From NCBI GenBank assembly GCA_903813345.2, contig CAIIXF020000012.1:27910184-27974183 (forward strand): DNA of 64,000 bases, given 5' to 3'. The translations under genes and the position numbers were made by a program. The stretch is from Owenia fusiformis (Eukaryota; Annelida; Polychaeta; Sabellida; Oweniidae). Shown here in pieces: positions 4,201 to 53,575 of this stretch (position 1 is the stretch's first letter; each line of letters begins with the position of its first letter). Under the pieces are notes generated by a model. The model did no database searches. It was not told the origin of the DNA and saw only the letters and a program-made list of their open reading frames with translations.

Positions 4201-5442
4201 TGCAAATATAAGTTCACATATTGCTGCACCATATTGTTCCACCAGCTCCTTCGTCAAATCCAGAGGTGCAATAAAAGATTTCCAAGCAAATGGTTATTTG
4301 GTCATTTTAGGTTTAGCAGGCTCTGGAAACATTTATGACACGTGGTATGATGGAACTCCAGTTGGGTTTACAAGGTAATGCTTTTGTAATGTACTGCTGT
4401 TGATTTTTTCTTTGGTACTTGTGCAGGGATACACCCCGAGCATGTAACTGTAGATTAACCGAAAGTTGAATGCAAATCTGTGTTACTTGGGCTTTCTCCA
4501 TTCTCTGTTACAGATGGAGGAGTGGTGAACCTAATAACATTGCAGAGGAGTGCGTATTCCACCGAACATCATCTAAAGACTGGATTGACACGAGTTGTAA
4601 TAGGGCATTGGCTTTCATTTGCGAATCAGAATCGAGAAAGGGTAGGTACCGTACTAGGTAGGGTAGGTAACTTAGACAAACGGCAGTTAAAATAGCAAGA
4701 ACACAAAAATACCAAAAGGGTGATAAAACTCAAGCAAAGTGTACTACTGAACATCTCTTTTAAAAACGCCTTTTCTGAATAATCGTGGCTTTGTTAATAG
4801 ATAGACTTTAATACTTGCTATTCTAAAACGGGTTGCAATAAGAATATTGTTTTGAAATCCCCATTAGACCCATCTTCAAAATATGAGATATTTTACATTA
4901 CCGATGTTTTTTTTGGAATGCAATATGCTTGTTTTGCATAGTACTTGGTAAGTTGGTATATGTTTAGTAATTTAATGTTTATACAATGTATTTCTTTACA
5001 TTCAGAACTCATACTTGATGGACCATATCTTCTTAAGCCGAACATCAATTCCGCTTACTATGTCGGTGTACATAACACCAATCAACTCTGGCTTTTCAAC
5101 CAGTCAACCAGCTCAAATGCCTTCTATGTCCAGTCACCTGGAATTACTTGGCAAAATAGCTCAGTATCTTTCTTCTCCGCTGATAAGACAAGGAACGTGA
5201 TGCACATCGTTGGCGAAAATGTTTTGCTTCAGAGCTTGTATGACAATACCCATAATGTGGACTTTGCGCAAGAATCAACATTTACTATGGTTGAAGGTGA
5301 ATTCCTCCAAGGTTTTGTCACGTTGCGAACATCTACCGGGGAGTACCTGAGGGTATCGGGAGGGCAGCTGATGGCGCATGCGTATGAAAACACAACTGCG
5401 TTTGAAAGCAGTGCAAGCTTTCAAATGTTCCCCTTTCTTTGA
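1252..5442 (+). CDS. Secreted PAN + C-type lectin + AbfB-like protein
   Basis: Five exons: 1252-1605, 3476-3710, 4311-4374, 4514-4641 and 5006-5442, joined in phases 0, 1, 2, 1 to give 405 residues. The start was chosen because it gives a signal peptide (residues 1-21, ending ERINA); the frame stays open upstream but without a leader. Residues 25-110 look like a PAN/apple domain (ECLREC and further Cys). Residues 119-261 form a C-type lectin domain with the N-terminal Cys pair, an EPN sugar-specificity motif in WRSGEPNN, WID where WND is usual, and the closing FICE. Residues 261-405 resemble the AbfB beta-trefoil (CBM42), with the repeated pattern VTLRT..GEYLR ... ASFQMFP. The phases of exons 2-5 fit exactly. 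The exon 1-2 join is weaker because the acceptor at 3475 has a poor pyrimidine tract, though it restores the lectin Cys pair. Likely an extracellular carbohydrate-binding protein; ligand unknown. Confidence 0.8.
2558..3400. mobile_element. 833-bp foldback element in intron 1 of the lectin gene
   Basis: The two arms (about 2563-2968 and 2992-3395) are near-perfect reverse complements around a short centre. The outer ends are CACAGGCTGG and its complement, flanked by the direct repeat TTAAT at 2558-2562 and 3396-3400, a likely target-site duplication. The motif GTCCGCTGTGACGGAGCA occurs at both ends of each arm, so it appears four times, two in each orientation. No transposase frame is visible. 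This is a non-autonomous element; the superfamily is uncertain, though a TTAA-containing target would suit piggyBac-like elements. Confidence 0.85.
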
Positions 5443-26100: not shown

Positions 26101-29100
26101 ATACATCCAAAAATATGGAATATTCTAATGAGGTATTGCTCGCTAAATATGGCGGTAACCAAGATACATTACAATACACCCATACTCACATCATGGTTTG
26201 CTCTTATCGCAGAGGCACTGTTGTCCCAGCCTCCTATTACGATCTCATACGTGTCTGTCTCTGGCTCGTCGAGTACTTTAGACAGAGCAATATGGGCATC
26301 TTTACATGCTTGAATTTCGATCACCATCTTAGTTCTACCTTTCATGTTTATTGGGAGGTATGTGTACGTATAGTCTTCATTAGTTTGCACGGTATAATCC
26401 CCTATGATATAAAATGAAAATAAATCTACATATACCCTATGGGTCAGTTAGACGCCTTTGAATAAATGAACGCATTCGAACTGTAACCAATAGAAGGGGA
26501 CAAATATATGTTTTTAGTTATGTTATTTGAAAACGGATTATGATTTCATGTTTTTTTAAATAAACACTCTATTTATAACAATACTTGTTGGTGCGGGATC
26601 CATGGTGAAAGATCCATACATTTGGTACTAACCTCTGTTAAACGAGATCGTGAAATCTGTCTTTGGAAGTGTTTTGGGAATGTTTTTGCCAGGAATATAA
26701 CAATCCTTCACGTCATATTTCTTGAGATATGGCCTGTTGATGTCCCCGTCCCAGAGCATACTCGTCAATTGCCAGGACTGGAAGTAAAATTCAGACATGT
26801 TAAATATATCTAAAGCATATTAACTAATTTATAAGTTATAGTAGTTGAAGTGTAAGTCTGTGTACTAGACTTACTCACTTAAATCCTCGTTTAATCAAGA
26901 CATCCCCGTGACGGCAACAGCCATGCTAGGGTTGTATGACGCAATCAACTAAACAATCGATGTTTCCCTTTTTTGAATATTTTTCCTCGATCCTCGTCCA
27001 CGTATACAGTATTTATCAATATTGTGAGTTAAGATCGTCAGTAACTTTTGGAGGTCTTTAATACAAGAACGGAGTTGACATTTCGACAAAGAACGGGATT
27101 GATTCTTCATGAAATTACAATAAAAACCCTGAAGAACACACGGGCTATTTTATGAATTACGCTATAGTCTCATAAAAAGTCACAGAAAAATCACAATGCA
27201 ATGCCAAAATTACAAACAATTGTTCCCTTCCCTCCATTTCCATGCATTTGGATAGAAAACGATATTCCAAAGCATAAAATACTATTAACTCACTCCATCC
27301 AATGCGCCAGTAACAAGTTTCAATGGTTGTTCGTATTGTTCCTCCTCGAGATGAGTCTTATAAAATGCCCAATCACTCTGAAATTGAAAAACTGAAAATT
27401 TTACGATATGAATCCAATTTAATACGAATTGGCGATGGTTTCTACAGTGCTTTTAAGGGATCTCTTATTTATTAAATATTGAAGAAAATATGTATTCTAA
27501 TGCTTTTAAATTACACTAATTTTTGATAAATGGCTTTCTTTAGATCAGTACCTTCGACATGAACCACGTGTGGGTGAAAGTTGCGCCTGGGCTTTGCTTC
27601 TTTTTATATTTTGTTACCGGGACAACCCCATCTCTCACTTTGTCCTAGAAAGAATGTGCATATTAAGTAATCACAAATGTTATGTAAGAACAACATCTAC
27701 ATTGTGTTCGATGCATCTGTCTAACTGCAACCGAAAGTGCACTATCTAGCGTCTTTGAATTTAATAGCATGTGCCAACAAATTTAGTTTTAAAAATGGAA
27801 AAATATGCGTAGGTAGTTCCCAGGTAGTTATGCTAGCAAGGTAGTTAACAGAACAGTCAACTTGAAAATTAGAGATTGCTGAGAGTAATCAGTTTCACTC
27901 CTTGTCTAAATTAGCCATTCATCTGTTTAAAAAAGAGAAATGTAATTATTATATCGAATATTAAGCTAGCTACTTGCATATGTGGGGATGCATAGTTATA
28001 TATCTTGAACGTTATTGTTGATACCTTCTAAAGACAAACTATCCAATTATGATAAGGTGTTTTAATGATAAAATGCACTAAAAAGGCGAACGTCTATAAA
28101 ATACAAAATGAAAATATCTTACATTTCCTATATTTTCAAATGTGATATCAACGTGGAAGAGATCGTCTAAGTCGATGGAATGGTTTTCATCTAAGGGCAA
28201 CGTCATTCGTCCAGGAGGGAAACTGATATAATCACACATACCTGTTTGTTTCTTGTATATATGCTTAATACCTATACAAAAATAGTACATTAAGAAATAT
28301 CAAATATGTGACACATCTTGTATTTGGTTGGGACCATACAGAAGCGTTAAGAAGACTATCATTAAATGTAATAACATACAATCCATTTTATGTTATATAC
28401 TTGAGCGATGTAAGTTAATGTATAAGTACAGCCAATTCCATACCAAGTACATTTAAATTATATATAGATCTATAACCAATAATTTAAAAATGTTCTTTAA
28501 AAGTGGAATCAAAGTACTATTGACTATGCAAAGTAAAATGACTAAGTCTGTTCCCCAGATGTTATCGTGTTGAAATATTGATTTTGGATTTAATTTGAAT
28601 AAAATTGGCTGTACACAATGGGATTTGCATTATTGTATAACTGACATACTGCACCTAGTTTGAAATCGTATGTCTCTGTCACTGGACCCTTCCCTGTGAT
28701 AGTTCTTTCAAACTTCATTATTTTACGGGCCTGATCGAAACAACCCTGGAAGAAAGACACACATTTTTCATGAAATCAATGAATAAATAAAGTTTAAATT
28801 CATCTTATTTACTTAAATTACAACTTTTACTTTAACTGTAGATCAAGGTTATTTTAGTGTTGTTCATTGAAATTTATCTTATTTTCAGTTCTTCGGTTTT
28901 TCCTGAATTTTTACTCATTCACAAAAGGTTGAAATCGATGACAAAAATTGAAGAACTTTTGAAAGTTGTGATCTTCATGTTATCCAATGAATAATTGTGT
29001 TTGCTGAAATCTAAATAGCGGGCTATCCATTTATGTCATCATTTAAGAAAAAAGGATTTCCATATACAATATTGATTCGACAGGAAATTAATAAGTTATA

Positions 29101-34546: not shown

Positions 34547-35547
34547 GACAGTAGTCAACTAAGGCACTCGAGATCTCCAAAGAAAGGTATTGTGATGGTT
34601 TTGTATATATAAATTTTCCATTTTAAATCCCATAGCACTCAAACGAGTTTCTTTATGAAGTAATTCAGTGAAAGAGGATCAACAAAATTCTGAGACTTTA
34701 CAGGATTGAATGTGGAAGTATTTTGCAAAATAGAAGACACTATCAATTCAGTTAATGATCCATTAATACCACTACTTGCAAAAAAATTTGTTCAATTGAC
34801 AATATGTTTCTCAAAATTAAAATAAAATTAAAACGTAACGAACGGTTTTAAATTTAAATCAATCAAATCACTAAAATAAGTATTCTTTATTCGAATTCAG
34901 ATTTCAGATGTTGCATCAAGATGTATGATCATATATATAATGTTTGTACATGCGACTTGTGCTTTTGACAATGAAATTGAAACTTTGCGTACTATTAAAT
35001 TGTGCTAACTATAGTAATATATGTATTTGTTTCATTGTTAACAGTTACTATCTTTAGCGAACTCTTCTCGTGCTTTACTTTCTTCAATTCGGTTTTCCCC
35101 ATTGCCCATGCGTTTTGGATATCAAGAGGGTAGCAATAAAACGAAATTGTATGTAAAACGAAAAAGGACAAGTTAAAGCCACATATACAGACACTTTACC
35201 TATATTATAAATCATCAAAAAGTAATATATAGGACACTGTCCTATATAAAATGAGATAAAGAAAATATATTGGGCTCAGAAAAAAAGAAAAAGAAAAATT
35301 ATTTGTCATGGTCAGGTTTTGTGTGACTTTCTAACCATCAGGCCATGGCCTAAGCTTGAATTTGCAGTGTAATTTTTGATATTATATGTTTATTTTGAAA
35401 ATATTGTTACCACTACGAAACAATTACCAAACAGGCAATGTCATGCTAATTATGTTAGAATACATATCAAAGTAAGTATTCTACACCAAATTCAGAATTA
35501 ATTATGTTAATCCAGTTTTCATTTTAATAATCTAAGTATTATAATGC

Positions 35548-36215
35548 ATCATATAATAATGAGCTATAATAATATGCATTGTGTAATATTGAGCTGAAGT
35601 AATATGCATCATATAATATTAAGCTAAAGCAATACGGTTCGTTCGTGCGATGTTGATGTAGTGTAATATACATCATATGATATTGATCTAAACTAATACA
35701 CATCATATGATATTGAGCTAAAGTAATATCCAACATACAATATGTAACTAAAGTAATTCGTATCATATGATATTGAGCTAAAGTAAAATGCATCATATAA
35801 TATTGAGCTAGAGAAATATGCATCATATAATAGTAAGATAAAGTAATATACATCATATGATTTTAGGCTAAAGTAATATGCATCATATGCTATTTAGCTA
35901 AAATAATACGCTTCATACGATACTGATCTTAAGTAGTATACATCATATGCTATTGAGCTAAAAGAATATGCATCATATGTTTTTAAGCATAAGTAATATG
36001 CATCATATGATATTGAACCTTAATAAAGGCATCATATGATATTGAGCTAAAGTAATTTTCTTCATATGATATTGAACTAATTTCTCTTCACACGATATTG
36101 ATCTAATGTAATATATTATATGATATTGAGCTAAAGTATATGCAACATACAATATTTAAGTAATTCGCATCATATGATATTGAGCTAAGATGAAGATAAA
36201 ATGCATCGAATATTA
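35548..36215. repeat. 30-bp minisatellite in the 5' region of CBM14 gene A
   Basis: About 22 diverged tandem copies of a 30-base unit reading roughly ATGCATCATATGATATTGAG then CTAAAGTAAT. It ends about 35 bases before the start codon, just ahead of the acceptor TTTTTAG at 36240-36246, so it probably lies in a 5' UTR intron or promoter. Gene B has a single ATTGAGCTAGTAC at the matching place. Confidence 0.9.
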
Positions 36216-36250: not shown

Positions 36251-39200
36251 ATGATGATCCTAGCTTTGTTAGTGAGTGTGGCTGTTGCCCTTGACACCAG
36301 GAGTGGGAAAAGTGAGTGGCGTACAAATAATATTTCCAAATTATAAATTTGAAATCTTGATCTTTTCCTGATATATGTATACAAGACTAAAAACGAGTAC
36401 AGAGTCAAACATTGTGCTTTGAACGCGACCAAAGCAATCCAAGGATTAATATTTCATTATTGCATGTCGTCATGTTGTTAATATGGGAGGGGTTATTTAT
36501 TTGTTTAGCCGTTGTCTTATACTTTCTATTTTATTTGTTTTAGAATACGATCTAGACGAGGCCCAACAAGGTAAATTACTATGCATATTTAAATCTAAAG
36601 TAGCCAAATACTCCCACAAGTTCATTTTAGATTGTTGAAATGGTTGCTTCTTTATGAAAATATCTCTGTTCTGAATTTAAATTTACGAATGCATATTTTA
36701 GATACGTTTATAATTCTAAATTGATCGAAAGAAAAGCGTGTGTTGATCTCGCCTCCGTCTTACAATTTAATGAATTTTGACTCGTGCATTTTAGCTCTCT
36801 GCATCTCAAGCCAGGGTTACTTGTCTGGCGCTGATTTCGACGAAGGGGATTGCTGTTCATTCGTTGTCTGCAACGCTGCTGAACTTAACAAAACCGGCTT
36901 CCTTGGAAAATGCATGGGAGGAACTGCGTACAATGCAGAGCTCCAAGTTTGCGATGACCCCAAGTATGTGCCCGGATGTAACCCAGCAGACTGCGATGGT
37001 AACTTTATCATTATATTATTTATTATAACCGTTTATGACACTTGACACAATAAGAAAATAAGTTTATGATAAGTATTCTGTTTGCCTGAAGGCGTATGTG
37101 AGACCAGATCACTATCCCTATCTGGAGTGTAAAAAGCATAATTTGCGGATACCCAGAATTGAAACGTAGTAGATTGTAATCATTCCACATGATGTGTACA
37201 CGCTTTTTCTATAATTCATAAGAAAAATAATTTCTATTTTTGGTTATAACGATTACACATTACCCTTCACACGAATGAATGGAAATATTTTTAATATTTC
37301 AACATTTTTCGTTTTGAAAATGATCTAGCTAAGAAGTAGAATTACGATGAGTAGCATTTCGACCACATTAGCATTCCAGCAAATATATTTGGAAGAGCAA
37401 TTTCATTTATGGACACAGACTATCTGACAAACAATGTTACTGATTTTATTATCAAGTGTACATATATCTAAATTACATATAAGTGTTATTTTAATCGGTT
37501 AAGTAATATCATAATCATGTAATTCGTTAATTTGAATAATTTATTCTGTTTTAGTCCCAAAGAGAACTACGGCAGAATGCCCAGCTGATTTACCAGAAGG
37601 TACGTCCAAATACATTGAACAGACCAGTGCGAACGTATTGGATAATATTTATTATTTTATTAAAATCAGTAAATATTCCTAAATTGATAAGAATCAAATC
37701 GGACCGTTTAGAGCAATATTTAATTATTAATGATAAAATCCAACTCAATAAAAAATACTTTAAAAATATTCGCTTACGATGTATTCATCATGACGTCCTT
37801 TTAATTAGTTGGTATTACATCAATCAAATAAGTATGTTATAATGAAAGCCTCTAAGATATCATGTTAGATATATGATTCCACAATCAGAATTTAACAATA
37901 TATGATGGCAATTTGAATGACTTAACAAGCGTTGTCCTAAGCTGCCATTGGATAATAATAATTTGCTGAAATATGAGTGTGGGCTGTCCAGGCAACTTAT
38001 AATGCTCATGGTTAGAGCAAAATCATTGTTAAAAAGTTAAATGAAAGATGTGAAAAATAACCTGGTTATTTTGATTTAGAGAGGAAAGGTCATAAAGAGG
38101 GCAGCACTTTAGTTTGTTTAGTTTTGCTTATACACTATAGAGGGCCAGTTTCTATTGCGCAATAGCAGCATGCAAAGTTTGTGAAAGTTAAATGAAAGAT
38201 TGAAATAGAATGATTGTTTATCTATCAAAATGTCTTTAACTGCAACTGATTTATTCACATTATAGGAAGTTGTTGTGTTGGGGGCAGAGAGCCAGTTTAC
38301 GCAGCACTTAGTGCAAATAGTTACGCACTCCCCGATGGCACACCACAATTCTGCCCCGCAGGACAAGTGTTCAGCACATCAGACTGCTGCTGCGAATTTG
38401 AATGTAAATATTTCTTCATAGTTTTTATCCTGGGAGTACAAGGAATATGGTTTTAATGCCTTTCCTAAAAACAACGACTCGTGGTTAGGAAATCATCCAA
38501 AATTAAAAAAAATATCGGTAATAAATTAATGTATTTCGTCGTTGTGTTATGCCAAGTGACATTATATTCTTGCTTTTACTGGCCACATAGATAATATAAG
38601 ATTACCTGCTAGTACTATTGTTGCTATGGTTGGTGAGATATTGTCAGGTGATCTTCTGTAACAACTGACCTTTAGAACTCCTGCTATTTTTGACCGGATA
38701 TTTTCAAGTATGGACGTCGTTTTCTTTATATACGAAATGACAACGTGAATTCAAAATTGATAATGGAAACGTGTGTTATTCCAGACGAGGTAGTCCCTGA
38801 GTGTGTTGATGGACCATATGCTGCCAACCCTGACGATGTATGCTGTAGCTACCTTCAATGTTTCGCTAATGGGTAAGCAAACTAAACCTCAATAAATCTA
38901 ATGGCGGAGAAGGAGGGTTTAGACATTGTTTCTTAACACATTGGATCATTCATTGGGATAGTTGGGGTTTGTTATCTTTATGACTTGTTTACTCTTAGAT
39001 GTTTACTTTTTCTTATTGTGTTCCAGTAGTTGGTATGTTAAAGCGTTTTCAATATTCATGCGTGCTCTCGTATGCTTTTTGCATACATATTTTTTCAATA
39101 TGATTTGTTTTTCCCAGAATACAAATTTTTACTTGAATACACGTCATTTATCCTTACAAAACCAAATGTTACCATGCTCGAATCAAGTTTGAAATAAACA

Positions 39201-41874
39201 TATTAATTATTATTTAAATGGTTACTTTAAGGTGCAATGTCTGATAAAAGCACAGAGTAACCCCCTGATATTTTTGGCTCTAAAAGATGTACAAGGAATT
39301 GGTCTTCGTTATATTTATTACTTTCAAGGGTTTCATAATATTGATTAAACGGTTGTATGTTGATTTGGACTTATTGTGTTTTATCCGACATTTAGTTGTT
39401 CTGTTGATTTTCTCAATATGTCGGTGATATCATGCCCTCAATATTGTGCCCTCAATATGTTCTCAAGATATATCTTAGGCATGTAAGATATTATATGGGC
39501 AGTTATAATGTGACTTCAATGATTGTCTTTGGACAGACCTAGGCGAAATTGTCTCTTTTTTTAAAAGTGAAGACGCCAAAAAAGGTAAAATATAGAAAAA
39601 TGTACCTGTGGAAAAGAGATGAGAAATGGATGCATACCTTTCAAATGGGATACTCGAAATCCTCATCGTGGTCGGTCTTAATTGTGATCTACTATCCCGT
39701 GATATCAATCGGACGATCCTTAATATAGAATGCAGTTTTACAAAAAATTTATATGCTGCATGGTTATAACATCAGACATTCTAGACCCACTTACCTGAAA
39801 TCGGCATTTCATATGAATAGGCTCCAATAATATGCTCTTTTAAGTCAGATACGTCAATTAACTACGCCTGAAGCAATTTCAAAGTCAGACGGATGCGCAT
39901 CGTCAGTATCTTATAACATATTTATTTTGATTCATGGATAACAACAAGAGTATCATATTTTACCAACATTAAAATGGATATCCAATATTTAAGGACTGGA
40001 TATGTTGTCGTACAATGTATGCCCCCATCCGTGTGGAATGACGTCAACAAGACCTGTGACATTGCAGTTAACGTCATGGAATGCATGAACGAGATGTGTG
40101 GAGGTATGAATAAATATATTTTAACTGTTTTTAAAACCCGCTGAAGGTAGTACACAATAGACCAAACAGTTGATTATTTTTTCACGAATCTACAGCTACT
40201 GGGGGTCTGCGAGGATTGCAATCAGGAAACAAAAGCAAATCTTTTGTTTAGTGAGTGCAATCACAGTGGACTTTACGCCAAGTCGCCAACAACTGTATGC
40301 TGAAAGGGGCAAATATGTTTTCTCTAACTTAAAACCCTTACACTGTCACCTATGCAAGCTAAACGGTAATCTTTAGTAACCTACACGCTTTAGTAATATC
40401 CAATTTTCAGTTGATTTTATTTTCAGTTGACCTTGCATAGCTAAAACAAAGAATACATATTTAGCAAAAAAATCCATCTGGCAATTTTACTTTCAGAATG
40501 TGCACTCTTGATTCTTCGAGCTACAGTCAAAGAAAACAGTTATATTCATACCTTTTTCTGCTTTTCTTGTCGATATCCATATACATCCATATACAGGTTT
40601 TCCAAATCTAGTGTTAGAATCGGAGGAATATTCAGGGGCTGATAGGTCGGATGTTTCGACACTGTACCGTAAATCAAATGTGCCAATTTCACTACTATCT
40701 ATTTCATATTTATTTACTCCTCCTATAAGTTCCCCAAGAAAGATCTTCATCCGTGTCGAGATCTGTCAATTCCTTGAAGGTATCCTGAGTCAAGGTATCC
40801 ATCCTTTCGTATTCCATGCTTCTTCTCGAATGTTAAACTAACTGTACTGAACATAGCGTTGACACCACGTACATACCGTACATGCAATACATACAAATCC
40901 AATACAAACCACCATTGACCATTCAAATGATCACGGACCAGTGCACTCACTACGATTACTATAGTTCATTGAAAATTGGCGATTACTAGAGCGTGTAGGT
41001 TTCTAAAGATTACCGTTTAGCTTGCATAGGTGACAGTGTATGGGTTTTAAGTCAGAGAAAACATTCGTGAGAGTTAATTCTTTGAAATTAACGGTTCGGC
41101 TAACGCCTCGCCGTTATTTTCAAAGAATCAACTCTCACTCATGCTTTCGATTCTCTATAACATAAAACATGAATTACTGTATACGTGGTACTTAATACGA
41201 ACACTTAATTTGCCGAAGTGGCAATATTCGACTCACCAACCGTATTCTATAAATAAACATATTTTATTTGTTTATAAAACACGAATCTAAAAATTGTAGT
41301 GATATGTTGTATTTCAGAAACATGCCACGTGACACATGTGTGCGCGTTGAGCTTTATTAATCTTGCATATTGAACAGAATATAATGAAATATAAAGTACT
41401 GATATAATGAAATATTAAAAATCTCAACATTGCAAAATTGTTTTACATTTCAGTCGAAATGACCGACCCTCCTTGTCCACCCTCTGTAGGAGACGGTGAG
41501 TGTAGACTTAACTATCGACATGCATATAATGTAATACAATTAACACAATACCACACAGTACTCTCTGAGAGATAAGACATACTAGTTTTAACAACGAAAG
41601 AATAAGCGTTAGTATTTCCTGAATTTTTAAAAAAAAATGTTGTCCGGGAATTATTTTCATATGCGCTAAAAGTAAATTTAATCCGATTTAATTGCGTTTT
41701 CAATCAATTGTAGATCAATGTTGTATTGCTGGGATTACATATGACGTCATTGATGATACAACATACAAGATAGCTGGTGACGATGTCGAGAAGACAAATT
41801 GTTGCCCAGTCGATGGTATGACTGATGTACAACTTGTTTTCAACAAGGAAGATTGTTGCTGTGAGGCACCTTAG
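36251..41874 (+). CDS. Secreted two-module CBM14 / DCCC cysteine-rich protein A
   Basis: Nine exons: 36251-36311, 36544-36570, 36795-36998, 37555-37599, 38266-38403, 38785-38872, 39994-40103, 41454-41495, 41714-41874; 876 bases, 291 residues. All introns are phase 1 except intron 6 (phase 2). Signal peptide at 1-13 (MMILALLVSVAVA). Residues 32-96 form a CBM14/peritrophin-A chitin-binding domain with Cys spacing C-x16-CC-x4-C-x13-C-x12-C-x8-C. A linker (98-112) and a Cys-rich module (113-158, CCVGG to DCCCE) follow. Then comes a second CBM14 domain (about 160-224, VWNDVNKTCD), a second linker and a second Cys-rich module (239-291, CCIAG to DCCCE). The Cys-rich module is not one I recognise. 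Likely a secreted chitin-associated protein (cuticle, shell, gut or mucus). The upstream acceptor at 36246 suggests a separate 5' UTR exon. Tandem paralogue of the gene at 47660-53575. Confidence 0.93.
40312..41068. repeat. Foldback element in intron 7 of gene A
   Basis: Arms of about 90 bases (40312-40402 and 40978-41068) are reverse complements, with CACCTATGCAAGCTAAACGG at the core. The interior contains minus-strand open frames (40493-40750, 40747-40950), one reading through a hydrophobic stretch; no family was recognised. Possibly captured genomic sequence. Confidence 0.75.
41066..41140. repeat. Short hairpin beside the foldback
   Basis: GAGAGTTAATTCTTTGAAA and a near reverse complement are separated by a GC-rich loop (TTCGGCTAACGCCTCG). 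The design resembles the hairpin at 11279-11415. Confidence 0.7.
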
Positions 41875-41909
41875 AAATGTCAACTTCATAGATAAATACA
41901 TTTGATATT

Positions 41910-41915
41910 ATTAAA
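41910..41915 (+). terminator. Polyadenylation signal ATTAAA of gene A
   Basis: ATTAAA 36 bases after the stop codon of gene A. Confidence 0.4.
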
Positions 41916-43004
41916 GAACAAATCAAAAAGCGTTTGTGTTATTTGTGTTTTACTAGGTCAATTTCACATTCCTGTGAAGGTTCTCTTTAAACCATGCACC
42001 TTAACCCGACCACCCCCACCCAATAATAAAAAAATCAAAACATGCATTTGATATAACTTTTTAAAAGTGAATGCCGTTTAAGCCATTGAGCCTCTCATCG
42101 AATGGGAATTTTCAATATAGGCGCTCAATTAACAATAGAGAGCTTTCGATGAAGGTTGTTTTGAAAACGCATATGTAAACTTGTACTTTAAAGGGTTATG
42201 TCACACTAAAATCAATTTGGAATTGATTTTCATGAATTGTTCCCAGTTGACAAAAATAGTTGCCGTGATGTAAAGCATATTCATCAATTAGTGATCACAA
42301 ATGTTATATCTGCTGTACATCATCAACTCGATATCTAGCTTTTGTGGTGTGGTGTTCTTACAAACAAGACCCTTTAACGCGGTTCATTCACACGAACGAA
42401 TGAATAGTTCTTATGAACGTTTTAGTTGAGATATAAAAAGGGGCATATACACGATGATGGTAAACTGATAAAAGGATTGGTATCGATATGATGAACTGAA
42501 TTCAACAATGTTTTTTCTTAAACAATCTGTGTTATTTTGACTGATTGACAACCATTTAATGCGAAAATTATTTATATATATTTCATATAACTGTTTTTGT
42601 TAACATTTTTTTGATCAACTAATCATTGCACGAAGCAAGCCATTTGCATTTGCTGCATAACAAACTCTCTCTCTCCAGTATCTTTACAGTGAATTTCATA
42701 ATGTCCATCTCAAAAAATCAATTTGAGATAAAACAGACCCATTATATATATATAATCATTTAGGAACCTAGTATTTTATTTTACACCAAGACATTTGAGA
42801 GAGACATGTGACACTAAATACAGTTTAAAAGTAACAAATGGCATTTGAACTATACATTCGGAGATTTTTACCAATAGCCACATTATGTGACACCCTTTAT
42901 AGAGAGACGCGGGGAAGTCATGGCTAAGCACTGGTGAGGAACTAGAAACGAAGAAAGGTTCATTTTATCCTTCCAATATTTGGCACATGTGTAGCTCTGG
43001 TGTA

Positions 43005-43152
43005 AAAGGGTAGGTGGTCCTATCAAATTTTGGTCCTACTCTCTATTGATTTATATGGTGACATAATCACAATTATTTTCCTTATTATTTATACACAGTC
43101 AGGGCCAGTAAGGAACTTTCACAAAGGGGACCATAATTTCTTTCACACCGGT
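43005..43152. repeat. Dispersed repeat, copy 2
   Basis: Reverse-complement relative of 30763-30890, sharing GTCCTACTCTC, GGACCATAATTTCTTTC and GGTGTAAAA. It is slightly longer than the other copy. Confidence 0.65.
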
Positions 43153-43397
43153 TTCAGAATATGGTAACAACTTTGAAATTGATAGTACTTATGACAAACG
43201 ATAAGTTTACTTTTATTTGGCCTTCTAGTTTAGGTCTGATTTCAAAAAGAAATTAACTGCGCAATATTGTCATGGCGAAATTTACAAAACAATAACCGAT
43301 TTCTTTATTTTTCAAATATTATGAAAATAAGAGTTGCTTTTAGAGACTTGAAAAAATGTTACACATCGATTTTTTACCACAAATTACATACATAAAA

Positions 43398-43592
43398 TTA
43401 CCCTACTATCACACCAAACTAGTTCTCACTACGAGAACTCACTAGGACCTACCCGTTCGAGTACGTTCGATGAAGTTTGTAAATAGACCCCAAACGGTTC
43501 TAATTTATAAGTACGTCCAGTCCGTTCGTACACAGTTGAAGCCCGTTTTCGAGAACGTAGTGGGAACTAGTTTGTGTGATAATATAGGGTTA
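43398..43592. mobile_element. 189-bp Harbinger-like MITE with TTA target duplication
   Basis: Terminal inverted repeats start CCCTA.TATCACAC..AAACTAGTTC and are flanked by TTA at 43398-43400 and 43590-43592. A 3-base TWA target is typical of PIF/Harbinger elements. No coding sequence. Confidence 0.75.
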
Positions 43593-44559
43593 GCATCGTT
43601 CTGTTTTACCATGTTTTAACATGCTCCAATATTATAAGGCATATTCTGTGATCTAGGCTCACTTTGATTGGAGGACATCGAAACCGAGAGGAAAGATCTC
43701 AAAAATCCTCATTTCTTGGATCATCAAATCCAACTCACTATATCATGACATCTTAAGGCTGAGAAAAAATGAGATGTTGTGGTTTATCATAATGGGAATT
43801 CGTTCTGTGTGATTTTAATTTTAATTTAATCCGAAAGAAGTCCTTTAAAAGTGTTGCTTGGGCCAATTGGAGCCCTTGTAGTTAACGAAACGTCGATTTG
43901 TGCGAATCGTATATACTAACAGTGGGACTCATCGCCCGATGTGTTGACATCCAACTTGGAAATCAACTTTTGCAGAGACGTCCCCTTACAATTTGAGTTT
44001 TACGAGCCCTGAAAATTCAACAATGATTATGATGTTCTGCTGTCATAAACGTGGCCAACGTGTCTCTGAAAACAAAAAAGGTTCCAGCAGACTTGCTTTC
44101 ATATAATACATGTACATGGTTTTAGCGTTAAGGGGTAACTCAACTATTAAATGCATGGCCCCAAACAATTCAATTGAAAAGCATGGAAGTCTTAGGATCA
44201 ATTATGAAAAAACTAAGATTCCAGTTACCTAACCAGAAATTCAAACTCAAGACAACCGTCATACCTTTTATGAAATTATATACACACGAGATAAACAAAA
44301 AAAAATGTAAGAAACAGTTTTGTAACAGTTTTCTTTCGAATAACTTTATCGGAAATGGAATTCCCAACCTTTTTTTACATAACATATTTTTGGAAGTCGA
44401 AGTCATCCCACATTGATTGAAACTTTCATGGATGAAAAAACTGAATCAAATGATATTATACAAGATTGCGTTTAATAGAAAGACAATTTTTATGAATCAG
44501 TTTAGACTACTTTTAAACAGTTTGTCGATTTGATCATGTACACTCCCCTCCATTGGCAA

Positions 44560-45250
44560 CTTAGCTCCCCTATTGAACTACGTGTTAAAGGTTCTCTGAG
44601 TTTGAATTTTTATTTACTTAACCTGCGATGAAATAACTTATAATATTGATGGAAACGCAACTTGACTTTATTTCCAATACCTTCAGATTTTCTCAATTTT
44701 TCCTCAATTATAATAGGTCGAACATTGATGATAAATTTGATGAATTTTTGACAATTGTCATTCCCATATAAACCAATGGGAAATGGTGGAGCAAATCAGA
44801 AATCAGGATATCTATTCAGAAAAAGATTCGGCAAAAAAATTATATAGAAAATCGATTTGTCTAACTTTTTTGTTCACTAAGTTTTTAGTTTACTTGATGA
44901 ATACTAAAGTTACAGAGCTTCAAAGTCATTTTTGAAAATCATTTTCGCCTCCTTTGTTATTTCAATGGAAGAGGTTTTTTGAAAAACAATTTTGACTTTA
45001 AAGACCTATAACTTTGTTGAACCTGAAAAAACATATCCATTTTTGTTAAATAAAGTTGGCAAATACAATTGTTTACCTAACTTTATCTTTTGCAAGGATT
45101 CGAATGGATGGATATTCTGTTATATGACTTGCGGCAAACCTACCATTTCCCATTGGTTAACATGGGAATGTCGATTTTCAAAAATTCATCAAATTTATCA
45201 TCAATGTTTGAACTCTTACTGTGGAAAAACTTTAGAAAAGGAGGTATCCG
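44560..45250. repeat. Foldback repeat, family X, copy 2
   Basis: Contains, in opposite orientation, the same blocks as 8080-8830: AACCTGCGATGAAATAACTT, ATTGATGATAAATTTGATGA and CATTTCCCATTGGTTAACATG. The interior includes TTTAAAGACCTATAACTTTG-type sequence present in copy 1. The boundaries are approximate. Confidence 0.65.
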
Positions 45251-47659
45251 TATGGAAGATTTCTACTAGATTTTCAGCACGCAATGTATTAAAATCCATG
45301 TTAGACGGAGGAAAATTTACGCCCAGAATTAACCCAACATTGCCTTAATGTTCCACGCTGTAAACTAAAGTGATAGCAGAGGGGTATATATGGACACAGT
45401 GTTGCTACAGAAACCATCCGGATGACATCTGTTGAAACCCATACAATGTGGTTTTCACCCAATTAATCTACCATATTGTGCGGCTACATTGTACCAATTG
45501 CTGGTGGAGCCTGATCAACTCTGCTTGGGGTAACTCATTATATCTGCTTCAGTTTAGTCCCCGAAAGCAGGGGGAGTGAGACTGCTGATGAAGCATATCA
45601 GTAGCCAGCACTGTTAGAGCATCTATGATGTTTTAAACAATCATAATGTACAGACGGGGCAGGGAATCCCTTCAAATCGAAACGTCTTTCAAACATCAAT
45701 TTTGAATGCCAATTTGTCATACCCCTTCCCCAAGCCAACTGCTTAATTCACGAATAAGAACTAACCAATACTTGGATGGCTGTTTGGGAGGATTGCTCCT
45801 GTTACTTCAGTATTGCAGGCTGCACTCATTGTAGACGTCGATCTAGTCCTTATTAATATTTTGTTGAGTCTTTAGTTGAAACATGCATCCCCCATTCCTG
45901 GCTTGTGAAACAGCATATATAGGTCTACACAAAGTCATGTAGTTGTCGCCGCGTTTGTTGAGAAGATAGTATTCATTGTCAACAAAGCAGACGTTGCCAA
46001 GACAGAAAATGGAAGCTTTCAACTTCTTAGTTAAAGTTGTTTTTGATAACTCTTGAGAGTATTGACGAATAAAAGACAAGACAGTAACTTTTTCAGCTGA
46101 TCAAGCCTGACCAGTCCTCGAATTTTTGGAGATGCCATTCCCCCTATATGGATGAAGACAGGTTCGGGAGGGTGTTAAACTCCCAAAAGTGATGTTTGAT
46201 TAAGAAAAATAATATCCATGGATTTTCATGAAATAAAGTTTTTCTTTAACAGGACATTAAACGTGTTAAAAGCATGATTCTGGACATGGCATGTTTTTAA
46301 CGAAATCTCATCAGAATTGACACGTCGTAAAATGTTCGTGCACCAATTAAGGTTCAATGGTAATATTAAAATAAATAAATATTCAATCGGAGGATTTAAA
46401 TGGCGTAGGGAGACTGTTCGAGCCCATTTCTCATTCATGTTGTAAAAAAGTTACGCAAATTGGGATAATGTATAATAATCACAGGTGTTCGGCCGTTATA
46501 AAGATGGCATCGTTATTAGAATTCTTTCAATCCTATTAATTTTTGAAATGTTCTGTAACAATCCGAAACTCGCGATTCAAATAGTGAAGTGAAAAAATGG
46601 CGCCTGATTGATTAATTTTGAATTTGAAAAATATTTCTATCGCCCTTAAGACTGTGTAGTAATCGAGATTAACGTACATACTGTAGATAAATTAGTTGAG
46701 AGCCTTGATCCCTTACACACTTTGTATTTCAACGATATTCAGATATGGACAAGAATCAATCACCGCTTTTCCGACATATTTATTAGTGTACTTCTAGTTA
46801 AAGGCATGCTGTAGCAATCCATCACTTTCGACAAGTGAACCAACAACAAACGTAAAGTCGGTGGTCAAACTAACTTAGGAGTACTCGACACATCACTGGG
46901 TAAGCTTTTGTTTATAATTCATCTTCATTGTTACTTGTGAATATTGGCAATTGTTTCGAAATACGTTGGCTTCCTGTGGTTAATTGTGTAGATTAGGTTT
47001 GAAATGCCTTTAAAATGCTGTTTGCTGAAAAACTTTCGGGCTTTAGGAGGGTTGAAATATGCCTCTAATTACAAGGGGTCAAAAACTTAAATATTTTCAT
47101 TTGAATTTTTACATATTTTATAATACCCTAGACGTTAATGTAAATTGGATTATCATTTTGTCAAAATTAATTTTTTCAATCTTATTTCCATTGGTTAAGT
47201 ATGTAATTACATAAATGTGCTTGTTTTATTTCGTTTATTTTTTCAAATATTGGCCAGGCAGATTCGACAAAATTGTGTGGATTAATTGAAAAAATTCATA
47301 ATTTCAAATATATTGGTTTTTACTATTTCAAAGTTTTATTTAAAGACAGACTTCTGAACCACCCAGTTGCTCATTAAACCTTATAAGGCAAATCACATCC
47401 ATTAGGCTTGTCGCTCAAATCGTTGTCCAATCCAAAGCTAATAGTGATGCTTTGTGGGATAATATTTATGTTTAAAAACATAACCAAAGCGCATGTTATA
47501 ATTTAATACTTTACAGTAAGTGAACATGAACTGAATGATAGCAATTGATGACAAACATTTTTTCAACCAAGAGTTTTAATCAGTTATTTGTATATTTAGC
47601 AACATGATGATACCAATTTTTAAACATTGAGCTAGTACTTGTTATGTATTTTCAGCAAC

Positions 47660-50600
47660 ATGATTATCCTGGCATTGTTAATGAGCATGGCTGTTGCCAT
47701 TGACACCAGGAGTGGGAAAAGTAAGTAACTCGGACAAATATTCTTTAGTAATTTATCTGACAGTTTTTGGAGATTTTGTCTTCCTTAAACTTACAGTTAA
47801 ATTCTTTCCATTTTGACCAACAATCGAAATGAAACAGCAGTTATATACATACAGTAATATGCAAGTTGTCAAACTCATTATTCTTGTTTCATGTTTTAAA
47901 TTAGTTTGTATTTTTATTTTTGCCCAAGATATGTGTCAATAAGAAGGACACAGTGACGGAAATGGTCACACTTAGTCACGCACCACGACCACAGCCTTCA
48001 AATTTGAGCAACAGTGGGGTATATCTTTTTAATCGGATAGCTTTTTTCTTTCAGAACTCGTATTGGATGCTGCTGCACAAGGTAAATCATTGTCAAAAAT
48101 ATTTTAAAAACAGTAAGCTATAGGGTGACGCAAAAAGTAAGTCTCTAATCTTTGGAATAGCAATCTCATATTTGATAATGTCATCGTGTACATACATTGC
48201 AGGGGAAATCGGTTTACGTTTCATGCATCTACAATGTATTGAAATGACCCTTTTCAATTTAGAAATACCCTCCTACATTATCAAAATGCAGGTTCACTTT
48301 ATCTGTCTCGATCTCGAGATATCTTTAGAAATTTCTGAATCTGATATCAAAATTCAAGTTAAAATAGTCCTTTTCACATTGCAAATGCAACTAACACCTG
48401 CCGGCTGCCGGATTAATTTGCTTTTTATGGGCAACTCATTTAAATATGAATAGTACCTGCCACTATTCCATTCATATTGAAATGAGTTGGTCATAAAATA
48501 GTTGGTTAATCCGGTAACCGACAGGCGTTAGTTGCCATCGCGAATACAAGTTAAGATACGAGTACACGATCATGAAATAATAAACTCTCTTTCATAACTC
48601 AATGATTCGTTTATTCCAGCTGCATGTATAACAACCCAAGGCTATTTAAGCAGTGATTTTACGGACGACCCCGAAGCAGACTGCTGTTCATTCATCGTGT
48701 GTAGTGCTCCTCATTTGAACAAAACGGGCTTCCTCGGTAAATGCATGGGAGGCACCGTATGGAATACAGATCTTTCAGTTTGCGATGATCCAAAATATTT
48801 TCCAAGTTGTGACCCTGCTGACTGCACTGGTGAGTCTCATTTTCAATAGCTAATTCAAAATCAATGAATTGCTCTGTGTTACAGGGTGGGTCAAAAAGAT
48901 AACCCAAACAAAAGTTAACAATTCAGTCATTTAGCATGATAGCATGGAGATATCAATGACTGGTAAAATATGCTATGGAGAGAAATATAGAATAAACGGT
49001 AGATACGAGTTGATACGATAATCACTTTTGATTTGCACCACGAGTGTTATCAAACTGACGCATGAACGCCGTCGATCATATAGAATCCCGTGTGATGCGA
49101 AACCTACACTGTATATTTTTTGTCATCAGTAAAACAATGTAGTTGACTTGTATATTGATTGTTATAGTTCCTGTAAGGACGACGGCTTTGTGTGGAGACT
49201 TGGAAGACGGTATGTATACGAGGGGAGATTTTAAAGTAAAAGACACATTCTATGATATTAAAATTGAGGTGCAAAGCTCATATTTAGACTGAACCCAAAA
49301 TCACTTGATTTCGAACTAATGACCTTATACTTGTAATTACTACAGTCAGTGCCGAGCTTAAAACGTTTCAAGATCTTGCGTTTTTCTATTGTGACCATGG
49401 CTCATAAAATGTGATGAAGGGATGGCAGACTTCATTTTAAAAACTTCTGTTATCTATTTACAGTATTTTCCAAAATCATTTCCCTTTAAGGAACTTGCTG
49501 TGTCGGAGGGCGAGAACCAGTTTACACAGTCCTAAGTGATAACAGTTACTCACTGTCCGATGGCAAACCACAATTCTGCCCCCTGGGACAAGTGTTCAGT
49601 ACGTCAGACTGCTGCTGCGAATTTGAATGTAAATGGATTTATTTAGCATGTTGATATGTTTAATACTCTTATGCAGTCACAAGATATACAGCAACCGTAT
49701 GGCGGCCATAGCTTCCCAAAATCGGAATACATATAAAATATAGTCATAAACACTACGATATCGATTTTGTATATCGATTCTATAAAGCTACGGCAGCCGT
49801 ACGACTGCCGTAGATTAAATGTGACTGAGCCGTCATATTTATTAGACATATAGTATTTATCCAGTTGAGCGCTACGCTTAAGCATAACTATATGTGTATT
49901 CATCTCAAGCTATGTTTAGTCATTTGATATTTTCATGACTTTTGTAACTTTTGAGCTGAAACTTCACTAATACATGCTGTCCAACAAAAGTATACCAAAC
50001 TTCAAAGGCAGATTACTAGAATCCTGAGCATTATTTCTGAAATACAAATGTGGAAGTAAAAAGCCTAGTTTGTCCCAGATTTTCATGGACACCCTGTGTT
50101 TCAGTACCACGAATTACACGTAATTGACAAATGATCATATCTCAAAAAATGATTGGATAGTTATGGTCATGTTTCATTCCCGGTGCCTACCTAATATGAT
50201 TGGCTGGTTCTTGACTTGTGACTATTTAAAATGTGATTGGTTAGTTATGGTCACGTGGGGATTTCTCCTTCCAGATGTTGTTGATCCTCGTTGTGAAACT
50301 GAGCTGTACATTGCCGATCCTGATAACGAGTGTTGTGGATTCCTCCAATGCTTTGCTAATAAGTGAGAATTACTTCAACAAAAAATATATTGAATATGTG
50401 TACAACAACACGCTTATCAAGCACATGATCAGATGTCAAAAAACGAATATGTAAATGCAAAATAATTACGACATATACACAGTTACTTTCATACAGTGTA
50501 TGCTTGTGACGAAGACGCAAAACATACCAACCAATGTATTAGTAAATGACCAGATAATAGAACTTCCATATGCATAAACAGATCAAGAATATCTGGATAA

Positions 50601-53575
50601 ATTATAATCTGCAGAATACATTCTCGAATAGAGGAGGCTTGTCTTGGAGATTTAAGTTGAAGAAATTGTCTTGAATAAACCAAAGTTTTTGTCTATTATT
50701 AGGACAGGAACGGTTGCTATAGAATGCAGGCCACCCTCCGTATGGAATGACGTCAACAAGACATGTGACCTTGCAACCAACGTCATGGATTGCATGAACG
50801 CGTATTGCGGAGGTAAGAATCAACATTTTAAGCGTCTAAATTTTGGCAGATTTCACAAACTGTCAACAATCGATGTATTTTAATACGACAAAAATCCCCC
50901 TGTCAGTTAATAACGACTTTGAGGTGGCCAGCATGATATCGAATCAGAACCATCCGTATTTCTAGGCATATTTTCTGATTTTTTGGGGTTGGCGTCTGAG
51001 TACAAATCGCATTAGATAAGGCTTTGTATTGTTTACAGCAGGTTCACATGTTCGCTATTGCAAGGTTGGAATGGTTTCCGTTTTTTTAGCGTTCTCTTTG
51101 GATCTTGCTATCCTCCAATTAAATATGTATACAAGTCACAGGGGCTTGTCTCGAGGCGTCGGGCAAGCCCTCCGATGATAGTCTACTGTTATAAAGAGTT
51201 TAAGGTAGCTCGATTTTGATGCTACCTGAAATTTGTAGAAAATGATTGTTAGATATATCCAGTAAAACATAAGGAATCCTTTCAATAATCAACATGCTGA
51301 TTCAAACAACACTAGAGCAAAGTTACCTAAAATGGTAGCAATCCATCCACTAATTGCTGAGAAATCTGAAGAATATGTAAAGAAGTGATTAAAATGCAAA
51401 AGCCCACAATTTTCGCATCCTAATTATTACCTCCAGAGTCGATTTCTTCCTCAAGACACGTCCACTGTTAAAAATTGGTAGTTCCTAGAGTTCTTTGTTT
51501 CCTTAGGTTCATTCCCGTATATCATTTTTAACGAAGGACAGCCTATAACGACTGCTATACGCAAAAAGATGCATGAAATTAGAAGTTTCGAAACTGAAAG
51601 TTGAAAAATGGCGAACGCATGCGCAATAACTACATATATTCTTAGATAGATGTCACTTGCGTTCATTATTTCACAGCAGTCCCTTCCCATGATGCACCTT
51701 AAATTGCGGAAATATTTTCCTGATTTTAGTGATAAAACAAATAACTCTCATCTTCGAAATACGTTTTCCATTCCTTGGCAATAATCTTTCATTTGGTATC
51801 TAAGTAAAACCGAACCAACCGCCGAAAAGTAATTCGAATCCTTGTGAATCGTGGGAATTAAGTACTTTCATTTTTGCGCATGCGCATAGAACACAGGAAG
51901 TCGCCATTTTTCAACGTTCAGTTTCGAAACTTCTAATTTCATGCATCTTTTTGCGTATAGCAGTCGTTATAGGCTGTCCTTCGTTAACAATAATATACGG
52001 GAATGAATCTAAGGAAACACAGAACCCTAGGAACTACCAATTTTTAACAGTGGACGTGTCTTGAGGAAGAAATCGACTCCGGAGGTAATAATTAAGATGC
52101 GAAAATTGTGGGCTTTTGCATTTTAATCACTTCTTTACATATTCTTCAGATTTCTCAGCAATTAGTGGATGGATTGCTACCATTTTAGGTAACTTTGCTC
52201 TGTAGTGTTGTTTGAATCAGCATGTTGATTATTGAAAGGATTCCTTATGTTTTTACTGGATATATCTAACAATCATTTTCTACAAATTTCAGGTAGCATC
52301 AAAATCGAACCCCCTTTTTACTCTTAATAAGCAGTAGACTCATCGGAGGGCTTGCCCGACGCCTCGAGACAAGCCCCTGTGATACAAGTATATAAAACTC
52401 TCGATAAAGGTGTCTGTCCCAAAATGTCAGGACACGCATATAGGGTGTTCATAAAATCGTTTTTCACTTGCCAAAGTTATTGTATTGTAATTGTAAAATC
52501 AATTAACTGCCAACCTGTATCACCGTTCGACTGATAAAATAACCCATCGCTGTATTTGGGCTTCACAAAACGCAAACGTAATAGTCGAGTCTTTTTGTTA
52601 TTAAACTGAAAATTATTAATGTTTTAGATGAGGTGACTGATCTCCCTTGCCCACCCACATTAGGAGAAGGTAAGACGATTTTAATCAGACTTCTAACAAT
52701 TACTTACTTGCATACATTTTGGAAAAAGTTGTGCATCGAAACGCATATGTTTCAACCCAGTCCATGTTTGCATTACATATGTTGGGTTTGAAATCGAAGA
52801 TAACAAGGGCGTTAATTTAGCACTGTTCTGCACGGTGCGGTATCCAAACTGCGTGGAAACCTGCACGCAGTTTGAAACCCTGACAAACTGAGCGCATATT
52901 CAAAAATGACTGACGGGGAGAACACGAGGACACTCATTTAGACCATTTGAAAGATGAACAACAACTACCAGGGGCCATTATATTACATGTTTACGTTGAA
53001 GTACTCTCGAACGCGTATAAAAGTTGACCTCTTTAATAACTTTGAAGGTCAAAAGATCGTTAAATAAAGTTAAGTATCGTGTCATTTTCTATGAAATATA
53101 ATCTGACATTTTTAGTTTTTTCCATGATATCGATGGGTGACAATTACTTGCACACTGCCCTTCGATTCAAAGCTTGGCAAGCTTCTTTGTCTACCCCATT
53201 AGATGTTTTACCTAAGAATTACATTGGAATGTATTATTTTCTGATGATTTTAGACAATCGTAATTCACATATTTTGAATGTTATACCTGTCCAAATCAAA
53301 AGGACTTCACCCATTTTGGATTCATTTCAGTAACTCTAGCTATATTGCAATCCCCCTCTTGTAGTTTTTATACCAATAAATAAAATTTGCAACGCTACTA
53401 TTTGATTTCAGACCAATGTTGTATTGCTGGTATTGTGTATGACGTCATTGACGACATAACATACAGAGACTCCGGCTCTGATAGGGTCAACTGCTGCCCT
53501 GTCGATGATATGAGTGAAGTACAACTAGTCTTTAGCAAGGATGATTGCTGCTGTGAAGTCCCGGATGAACCTTAA
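47660..53575 (+). CDS. Secreted two-module CBM14 / DCCC cysteine-rich protein B
   Basis: Nine exons: 47660-47720, 48055-48081, 48620-48829, 49168-49209, 49491-49628, 50275-50362, 50703-50812, 52628-52669, 53412-53575; 882 bases, 293 residues. Exon order, lengths and phases mirror gene A almost exactly (exon 3 two codons longer, exon 4 one shorter, exon 9 one longer). Signal peptide MIILALLMSMAVA. Two CBM14 domains (KTGFLGKCMGG in the first, VWNDVNKTCD in the second) alternate with two Cys-rich modules (CCVGGREPVY to DCCCEFE, and CCIAGIVYDVIDD to DCCCE). Exon 5 is the most conserved part between A and B. As in gene A, an acceptor just before the ATG implies a non-coding first exon. Role inferred: extracellular chitin binding. 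Confidence 0.93.
48379..48550. repeat. Palindromic element in intron 2 of gene B
   Basis: Arms with CAACTAACACCTGCCGG, CCGGATTAA and ATGAATAGT recur in reverse complement around 48467. Arms are about 75 bases, imperfect. The matching intron of gene A is much shorter and lacks it. Confidence 0.75.
51129..52389. mobile_element. 1245-bp hAT-type foldback in intron 7 of gene B
   Basis: The direct repeat ATACAAGT stands at 51129-51136 and 52382-52389. The element (51137-52381) begins CACAGGGGCTTGTCTCGAGG and ends with its reverse complement. Arms run about 490 bases each and look roughly 95 percent identical, with a spacer of about 270 bases. The 8-base duplication and short terminal motif fit the hAT superfamily. 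No transposase is present. High arm identity suggests a recent insertion or ongoing arm homogenisation. Confidence 0.9.

What the first reader, a model, noticed from the sequence alone, without database searches (positions are those of the whole stretch)
36251..53575. Tandem genes with an apparently undescribed cysteine-rich module paired to CBM14
Each protein is two repeats of CBM14 plus linker plus a 45-50 residue module with the pattern CC-(V/I)-(G/A)-G ... C-P ... V-F-x3-DCCCE. The module occurs four times in the window (two per gene), always in its own phase-1 exon following a CBM14 exon set. The triple cysteine ending and conserved exon boundaries argue for a real domain. I cannot name a family for it.
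Basis: partly seen in the sequence, partly recalled or inferred. Interest (0 to 1): 0.8.

Follow-up and report, generated by a model that had tools for sequence, protein, structure and literature searches.

The report
Diverged chitin-binding domain, mass-copied
The unnamed cysteine-rich module is real and is most likely a far-drifted form of the common CBM14 chitin-binding domain, found in at least 77 copies in this animal's genome, usually beside ordinary copies of that same domain.

Summary
Two tandem nine-exon genes each encode a probably secreted protein of about 290 residues, built as (CBM14, short linker, cysteine module) twice, with clean splice sites. Module exons evolve under constraint by NG86, while the introns no longer align. 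The module is larger than reported: the preceding small exon supplies its first cysteine. At least 77 complete copies were found in this genome, the window's four included; a CBM14 exon lies near the module in 20 of 20 longer loci examined.

Pfam names nothing. But the predicted structure of module A retrieves CBM14 proteins: 7 of the top 8 PDB rows, and 24 of 50 listed viral rows are named chitin-binding or VP91, though no E-value reaches 0.001. Eight transitional domains of the same genome bridge module and CBM14 by profile. So this is probably not a new fold but a CBM14 derivative with a changed cysteine pattern. It fails CBM14's formal tests, so I file it as CBM14-derived, a new variant of a known kind. 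Proposed role: chitin-matrix protein. Expression, binding and disulphides are untested.

The parts
36251..36311 (+). gene 1 exon 1: start codon and signal-peptide-like N-terminus (MMILALLVSVAVA...)
   Evidence: gene model; signal peptide judged by eye only
36544..36570 (+). gene 1 exon 2 (9 codons)
   Evidence: AG acceptor, GT donor, phase 1
36795..36998 (+). gene 1 exon 3: first CBM14 domain
37555..37599 (+). gene 1 exon 4: linker, supplies the first cysteine of module A
38266..38403 (+). gene 1 exon 5: module A (GSCCVGG...CPAGQVFSTSDCCCEFE)
38785..38872 (+). gene 1 exon 6: second CBM14, first half
39994..40103 (+). gene 1 exon 7: second CBM14, second half
41454..41495 (+). gene 1 exon 8: linker, supplies the first cysteine of module B
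41714..41874 (+). gene 1 exon 9: module B (DQCCIAG...NCCPVDG...VFNKEDCCCEAP) and stop codon
47660..47720 (+). gene 2 exon 1: start codon and signal-peptide-like N-terminus
   Evidence: signal peptide judged by eye only
48055..48081 (+). gene 2 exon 2
48620..48829 (+). gene 2 exon 3: first CBM14 domain
49168..49209 (+). gene 2 exon 4: linker with first cysteine of module A
49491..49628 (+). gene 2 exon 5: module A
50275..50362 (+). gene 2 exon 6: second CBM14, first half
50703..50812 (+). gene 2 exon 7: second CBM14, second half
52628..52669 (+). gene 2 exon 8: linker with first cysteine of module B
53412..53575 (+). gene 2 exon 9: module B and stop codon

Best explanation
The module is a CBM14 (peritrophin-A, chitin-binding type 2) domain that has drifted beyond sequence detection. 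Computed: it has six conserved cysteine positions (C1 in the linker exon, adjacent C2 and C2', C4 before proline, and C5-x-C5'); it lacks the canonical C3 (Tyr-x-Cys) and C6; the predicted structure of module A resembles CBM14. Inferred: three disulphides are kept in number but re-partnered (C1 with C2' in place of C1-C3, C2 with C5' in place of C2-C6, C4-C5 unchanged). The C-terminal type (module B) adds a fourth bridge between an extra Cys before C4 and the middle Cys of CCC. Each protein is thus a secreted chain of two ordinary CBM14 domains alternating with two derived ones. Most likely it binds chitin through the ordinary CBM14s and uses the derived ones as stable spacers, extra weak glycan contacts or thiol cross-link sites in a chitin-based extracellular matrix. 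Module A leaves an odd cysteine (31 per protein), which would suit a bond between chains. The family grew by repeated duplication in this lineage.
For: Foldseek on the module A model (pLDDT 82): 7 of the top 8 PDB rows are CBM14 proteins (PfAvr4 twice, human chitotriosidase twice, its isolated CBM14 6so0, EHEP twice). In the viral library 19 of the 50 rows shown carry chitin-binding names and 5 are VP91; best probability 1.00, E 0.054. The only PDB sequence hit of the 28-copy profile is chitotriosidase CBM14, E 1.3. Eight transitional domains (C..CC..C..CxC, no C3; five end in CDWP and one in CDYP) compare with CBM14 at probability 98%, E 4e-13, and with the module at 77%, E 2e-5, cysteines in register; in the reverse direction 53%, E 1.4e-4, score 23.0, which 0 of 200 Cys-fixed column shuffles reach (maximum 17.2). 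The CBM14 profile A6 (14 rows, one of them transitional) scores above 0 bits on 50 of 77 modules against 7 to 16 of 77 in 20 Cys-fixed shuffles. A CBM14 exon lies near the module in 20 of 20 longer loci (17, three more). NG86 dN/dS of the module exons with linker is 0.114 and 0.134.
Against: No structural match reaches E 0.001 (best 0.43 in PDB; 0.054 in the viral library). The module B model gives only weak hits: 10 rows up to E 10, chitotriosidase fourth by E-value (7.0) though with the highest TM-score, 0.52. None of 28 copies hits Pfam CBM_14. Module against canonical CBM14s without the L017 rows is not significant (probability 1.7%, E 0.029). The Trp of the CDWP ending is present in 1 of 77 modules, and it is also missing from the ordinary CBM14s of both window genes (CDDP, CDIA, CDLA), so chitin binding is unproved for either kind of domain here. 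YN00 gives dN/dS 0.80 for module B. No expression, binding or disulphide data.
Confidence: 0.7

Rival explanations
1. The module is an unrelated small beta-rich disulphide domain that converged on a CBM14-like shape and a C-P-x-G-x-x-F...C-x-C ending.
For: No family library recognises it; the direct comparison with canonical CBM14s alone is not significant; canonical C3 and C6 are absent; structural E-values are all above 0.001.
Against: Transitional domains with the module's cysteine pattern and a CBM14 ending; both structural libraries retrieve CBM14 with module A; CC and C1 also stand in the CBM14s of the same proteins.
Confidence: 0.15
2. The module has lost glycan binding and serves only for protein-protein or covalent cross-linking, the odd cysteine of module A forming bonds between chains.
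For: g1, g2, L009, L011 and L027 each show 31 cysteines, 8+7+8+8 by domain (first exons of L009 and L027 not included). In module B the extra Cys and the middle Cys are both present in 17 rows, both absent in 3, mixed in 2 (Fisher p 0.0065), which fits pairing there and leaves module A's middle Cys without that partner.
Against: L014 comes to 30 by domain (8+7+8+7), its 31 including a doubtful first exon; L017 has two A-type modules (7 and 7) and reaches 31 only with a doubtful first residue. The middle Cys is replaced in 11 of 64 A-type rows. Related copies were counted as independent. Loss of the CDWP Trp is no special sign of the module, since the ordinary CBM14s of g1 and g2 lack it too.
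Confidence: 0.27
3. The proteins act in gut or surface immunity (soluble chitin or glycan lectins against microbes), not in a structural matrix.
For: Large diversifying tandem families are common among immune lectins (recalled); window neighbours include PAN and C-type lectin exons.
Against: No direct evidence either way; tandem-expanded CBM14 proteins are found in a siboglinid tube proteome (PMC8476170, passages).
Confidence: 0.25

Closest known systems
CBM14 / peritrophin-A / chitin-binding type 2 domain (Pfam PF01607)
   Same: Predicted fold of module A; matching places of C1, C2, C4 and C5 through the transitional domains; C-P-x-G-x-x-F stretch; alternation with true CBM14 in the same proteins.
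   Different: No C3 or C6, adjacent C2C2' and C5-x-C5', no Pfam hit in 28 copies.
CBM14 of human chitotriosidase (6so0, 5hbf)
   Same: The one PDB row of the 28-copy profile and the highest TM-score among the rows shown in both PDB fold searches (0.52, 0.65): CPTGLVFSNSCKCC against CPAGQVFSTSDCCC.
   Different: Keeps Tyr-x-Cys and, as recalled, a Trp after the last Cys; attached to a chitinase.
EHEP of Aplysia kurodai (8in3, three peritrophin-A domains)
   Same: Cysteine-rich multi-CBM14 protein; among the top fold hits.
   Different: Canonical CX15CX5CX9CX12CX5-9C with C1-C3, C2-C6, C4-C5; binds tannic acid, a phlorotannin analogue (PMC10619976, passages).
ChtBD2 tube matrix proteins of the siboglinid Paraescarpia echinospica
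   Same: Tandem-expanded CBM14 proteins in a marine worm, found in its chitinous tube proteome (PMC8476170, passages).
   Different: The passages mention no derived module; I had no sequences to compare.

Membership tests
CBM14 (Pfam PF01607) - the module | Reaches the Pfam gathering score (22.1 bits) | tested here: not met
   0 of 28 copies match CBM_14 at E up to 10
CBM14 (Pfam PF01607) - the module | Six cysteines spaced about CX15CX5CX9CX12CX5-9C (pattern from PMC10619976, passage) | tested here: not met
   C3 and C6 missing; six conserved cysteines in a different arrangement
CBM14 (Pfam PF01607) - the module | CBM14 fold (three- plus two-stranded antiparallel sheets) | tested here: inconclusive
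   All-beta models; 7 of top 8 PDB rows CBM14 for module A, but best E 0.43; weak for module B
CBM14 (Pfam PF01607) - the module | Common descent with CBM14 | tested here: inconclusive
   Favourable through the transitional domains: E 4e-13 to CBM14, E 2e-5 (probability 77%; reverse 53%) to the module, 0 of 200 shuffles; direct comparison with canonical CBM14s alone not significant
CBM14 (Pfam PF01607) - the module | Disulphides C1-C3, C2-C6, C4-C5 | not testable with these tools
   Model coordinates not available; C3 and C6 do not exist in the module
CBM14 (Pfam PF01607) - the module | Binds chitin | not testable with these tools
   Needs a binding assay
CBM14 (Pfam PF01607) - the other two domains of each protein | Reaches the Pfam gathering score | tested here: met
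   29.0 and 33.1 bits for the whole proteins, two stretches each
Pfam CC domain (PF04942) | Pfam match | tested here: not met
   1 of 28 copies, E 0.67
Galaxin-type di-cysteine repeat (resemblance recalled) | Match to a galaxin model | tested here: inconclusive
   No such row among 28 copies, but that the library holds a galaxin model was not checked

The most novel reading that the evidence does not exclude
A CBM14 domain was duplicated inside a gene, lost two of its six canonical cysteines and gained two at new places, so that the same small fold is held by a different disulphide network and, in module A, left with an odd thiol. The pair (old CBM14 plus re-wired copy) then spread to dozens of genes as the building unit of a disulphide cross-linked chitin matrix. 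Surviving intermediates in one genome (C3 lost, CxC gained, CDWP and the C-terminal cysteines kept) would make this a step-by-step record of disulphide rewiring in a domain.
Probability: 0.3. Interest if true: 0.6.

Novelty: new variant of a known kind. Interest (0 to 1): 0.38.

Why it matters
It gives a name and a lineage to a domain that the family libraries tried here miss, present in at least 77 copies in one animal genome, so that annotation of such proteins can be corrected. If the rewiring reading holds, the transitional domains let one test how a disulphide-held fold changes its bonding pattern without losing shape, and whether the odd cysteine makes a covalently linked chitin matrix.

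Tried and rejected
Other known domains: Pfam on the two proteins and four modules, on 7 paralogue proteins or parts of them and on 28 module copies, NCBIfam on 4 copies and PDB sequences with the 4- and 28-copy profiles gave no alternative. A weak DUF7747 hit on gene 1 (E 0.011) did not recur in the 7 paralogues, and a genome search with that family gave one match, below its cut-off (E 1.87), so I dropped it. VWC-, TIL- and galaxin-like patterns were resemblances from memory and got no support.

Relatives outside this genome could not be sought well. The search for related loci with the 28-copy alignment found no stretch conserved enough to search with, for either collection, and I did not try single proteins; the other genomes on hand are prokaryotic. 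So how far the module spreads among animals is unknown.

Tree of 77 modules: A and B types (60 and 16; one unclassified) each fall on one side of a branch, but with weak support (20/93; 14% of bootstrap trees), so the order of duplications is not settled.

Literature: 8 searches. In the listings I saw nothing that I recognised as this module. Passages were read of PMC8476170, PMC13121700, PMC9539403 and PMC10619976; no paper was read whole. Most subscription papers are not held, so this is weak evidence of absence.

One search shows that the residue after CxC is Glu in 67 of 77 modules, where CDWP has Asp; that the next residue is Trp in 1 of 77; and that the ordinary CBM14s of both genes lack this Trp too. 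I lowered two odds slightly for that (0.72 to 0.70 and 0.30 to 0.27). A last count (68 rows) used a pattern that also matches the CCC end and is not used.

Full report
Setting. That would fit the annelid Owenia fusiformis, which has 12 chromosomes (PMC9539403, passage), but no call shows the species.

The genes. Both genes are on the plus strand with nine exons each and standard splice sites. Gene 1 gives 291 residues and gene 2 gives 293, 70% identical. Each starts with a signal-peptide-like stretch (by eye) and reads CBM14, linker, module A, CBM14, linker, module B. At E 1e-3 five blocks of the two gene regions align as DNA, on exons 1, 3, 5, 7 and 9. NG86 dN/dS is 0.144 over the aligned coding sequence, 0.114 for module A with linker and 0.134 for module B with linker. 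YN00 gives 0.279, 0.115 and 0.797; the last rests on a dS of 0.374 where NG86 gives 1.322, so constraint on module B is less certain.

The module. In 28 copies read with their linkers, C1, CC, C4, F and C5-x-C5' are invariant; these came from an alignment that favours cysteines. C1 can be read directly in 15 rows where linker and module share one open stretch: L009 (A and B), L010, L011, L012, L013, L027, L028, L049, L050, L051, L052, L053, L063 and L083. A profile of the 28 run on all fetched loci gives 87 rows at i-E 1e-3 or better after removing one duplicate; 77 are complete and 10 are pieces. 'Complete' was defined by a pattern from CC (or CY) to C-x-C, so the constancy of C2, C4, C5 and C5' in the 77 is partly by definition. 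Not so: C2' is Cys in 76 of 77, P after C4 in 72, F in 76, aromatic (Tyr or Phe) at the two tyrosine columns in 74 and 77, Glu after C5' in 67, and the middle residue of CCC is Cys in 64. Candidate places came; weaker members may be missed, so the number is a lower bound.

Pairing with CBM14. Of 20 longer stretches, 17 contain a CBM14 exon. For the other three (L020, L021, L022) one was found just outside the stretch (L094, L089, L086). The short stretches were not tested for this.

Identity of the module. Family libraries are silent. Two structure models were made from the four window exons alone, without C1: module B first (pLDDT 81, pTM 0.52) and module A first (pLDDT 82, pTM 0.57). Module B gave 10 weak PDB rows; full-length chitotriosidase had the highest TM-score (0.52) but ranked fourth by E-value (7.0), and 6 of the 10 rows are MPS1/TTK kinase entries. 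Module A gave 144 rows up to E 10, 50 shown; ranks 1-6 and 8 are CBM14 proteins, as is rank 29 (Blo t 12); rank 7 is not. For chitotriosidase the aligned range was not printed, but its isolated CBM14 (6so0) is rank 4. In the viral library there were 283 rows, 50 shown: 19 carry chitin-binding names, 5 are VP91 (which carries a CBM14; recalled), one is a reovirus protein, the others are baculovirus proteins without a telling name or rows without any name. No row in either library reaches E 0.001. As a control, ordinary CBM14s of these proteins (profile A6) find solved CBM14s by sequence at up to 8.2e-9 while the module profile finds one at E 1.3, which shows how far it has drifted.

Bridge. Eight domains near modules in loci L017 (two), L084, L085, L086, L087, L089 and L092 have C-x(7-8)-CC, no C3, then C...C-x-C, and keep the CBM14 tail of two more cysteines; five end in CDWP and one in CDYP. 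Taken alone, Pfam sees CBM_14 above cut-off in one of the eight, below it in three, and gives nothing for four. Profile comparison: with canonical CBM14s E 4e-13, probability 98%; with the module E 2e-5, probability 77%, and E 1.4e-4, 53%, score 23.0 in the reverse direction, which 0 of 200 Cys-fixed shuffles reach (maximum 17.2). The module against canonical CBM14s without the L017 rows is not significant, E 0.029, probability 1.7%; with those rows included it was E 8.5e-4, probability 24%, 0 of 200 shuffles of either kind. So the link rests on the intermediates and on the fold.

Cysteine network. The canonical bonds are C1-C3, C2-C6, C4-C5 (PMC10619976, passage). The module lacks C3 and C6 and has C2' and C5' instead, six conserved positions in all. 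My inference is C1-C2', C2-C5', C4-C5; no call tests it. In 22 B-type rows (partial ones included) the extra Cys before C4 and the middle Cys are both present in 17, both absent in 3, mixed in 2 (Fisher p 0.0065, relatedness ignored), which fits a fourth bridge. In 64 A-type rows the middle Cys is present in 53 (one of these also has the extra Cys); 3 rows were not classifiable. g1, g2, L009, L011 and L027 count 31 cysteines, 8+7+8+8 (first exons of L009 and L027 not included), so one should be unpaired. L014 and L017 also count 31 there, but by domain L014 is 8+7+8+7 and its extra one lies in a doubtful first exon, and L017's includes a doubtful first residue; I do not count these two as support.

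Function. The likeliest role is a secreted chitin-matrix protein. This follows from the CBM14s and from known siboglinid tube proteins (PMC8476170, passages), not from any data on these genes. The Trp of CDWP-type CBM14s is present in 1 of 77 modules, but is missing from the ordinary CBM14s of both window genes too, so chitin binding needs testing for both.

Verdict. Observation confirmed; interpretation partly supported; new variant of a known kind. Because the module fails the Pfam threshold and the cysteine pattern, I do not file it as a CBM14 member but as CBM14-derived.

Noticed in passing
window 51136-52382: A fold-back element lies inside the seventh intron of gene 2: inverted arms of 43, 66, 54 and 301 nt, 95-100% complementary, nested in the same order.
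   Followed up: partly
window 40315-41064: An inverted repeat with 95-nt arms, 94% complementary, lies in the corresponding intron of gene 1.
   Followed up: no
window 35544-36188: A 30-bp minisatellite of about 22 diverged copies ends just upstream of gene 1.
   Followed up: no
L021 1247-1827 (C1, about 16.796 Mb): A 60-bp minisatellite (9.5 copies) directly upstream of a module exon repeats what looks like the splice acceptor and the first codons of that same exon.
   Followed up: partly
G000 C4 6382183-6383449 (+) and C4 6999107-7001433 (-): Two genes of the family about 0.6 Mb apart in opposite orientation have identical module A sequences: a recent duplication or an assembly duplicate.
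   Followed up: no
window 994-1626, 3446-3733, 4942-5442, 14184-14459, 21168-22085, 26169-26447: Neighbouring open stretches match PAN, C-type lectin, AbfB, PhoPQ_related, PAN (twice) and Methyltransf_FA domains.
   Followed up: no
L048 (C12 21525498-21525626): A weak profile hit with a single Cys at the CC position and a Tyr-x-Cys looks like another half-way form between CBM14 and the module.
   Followed up: no
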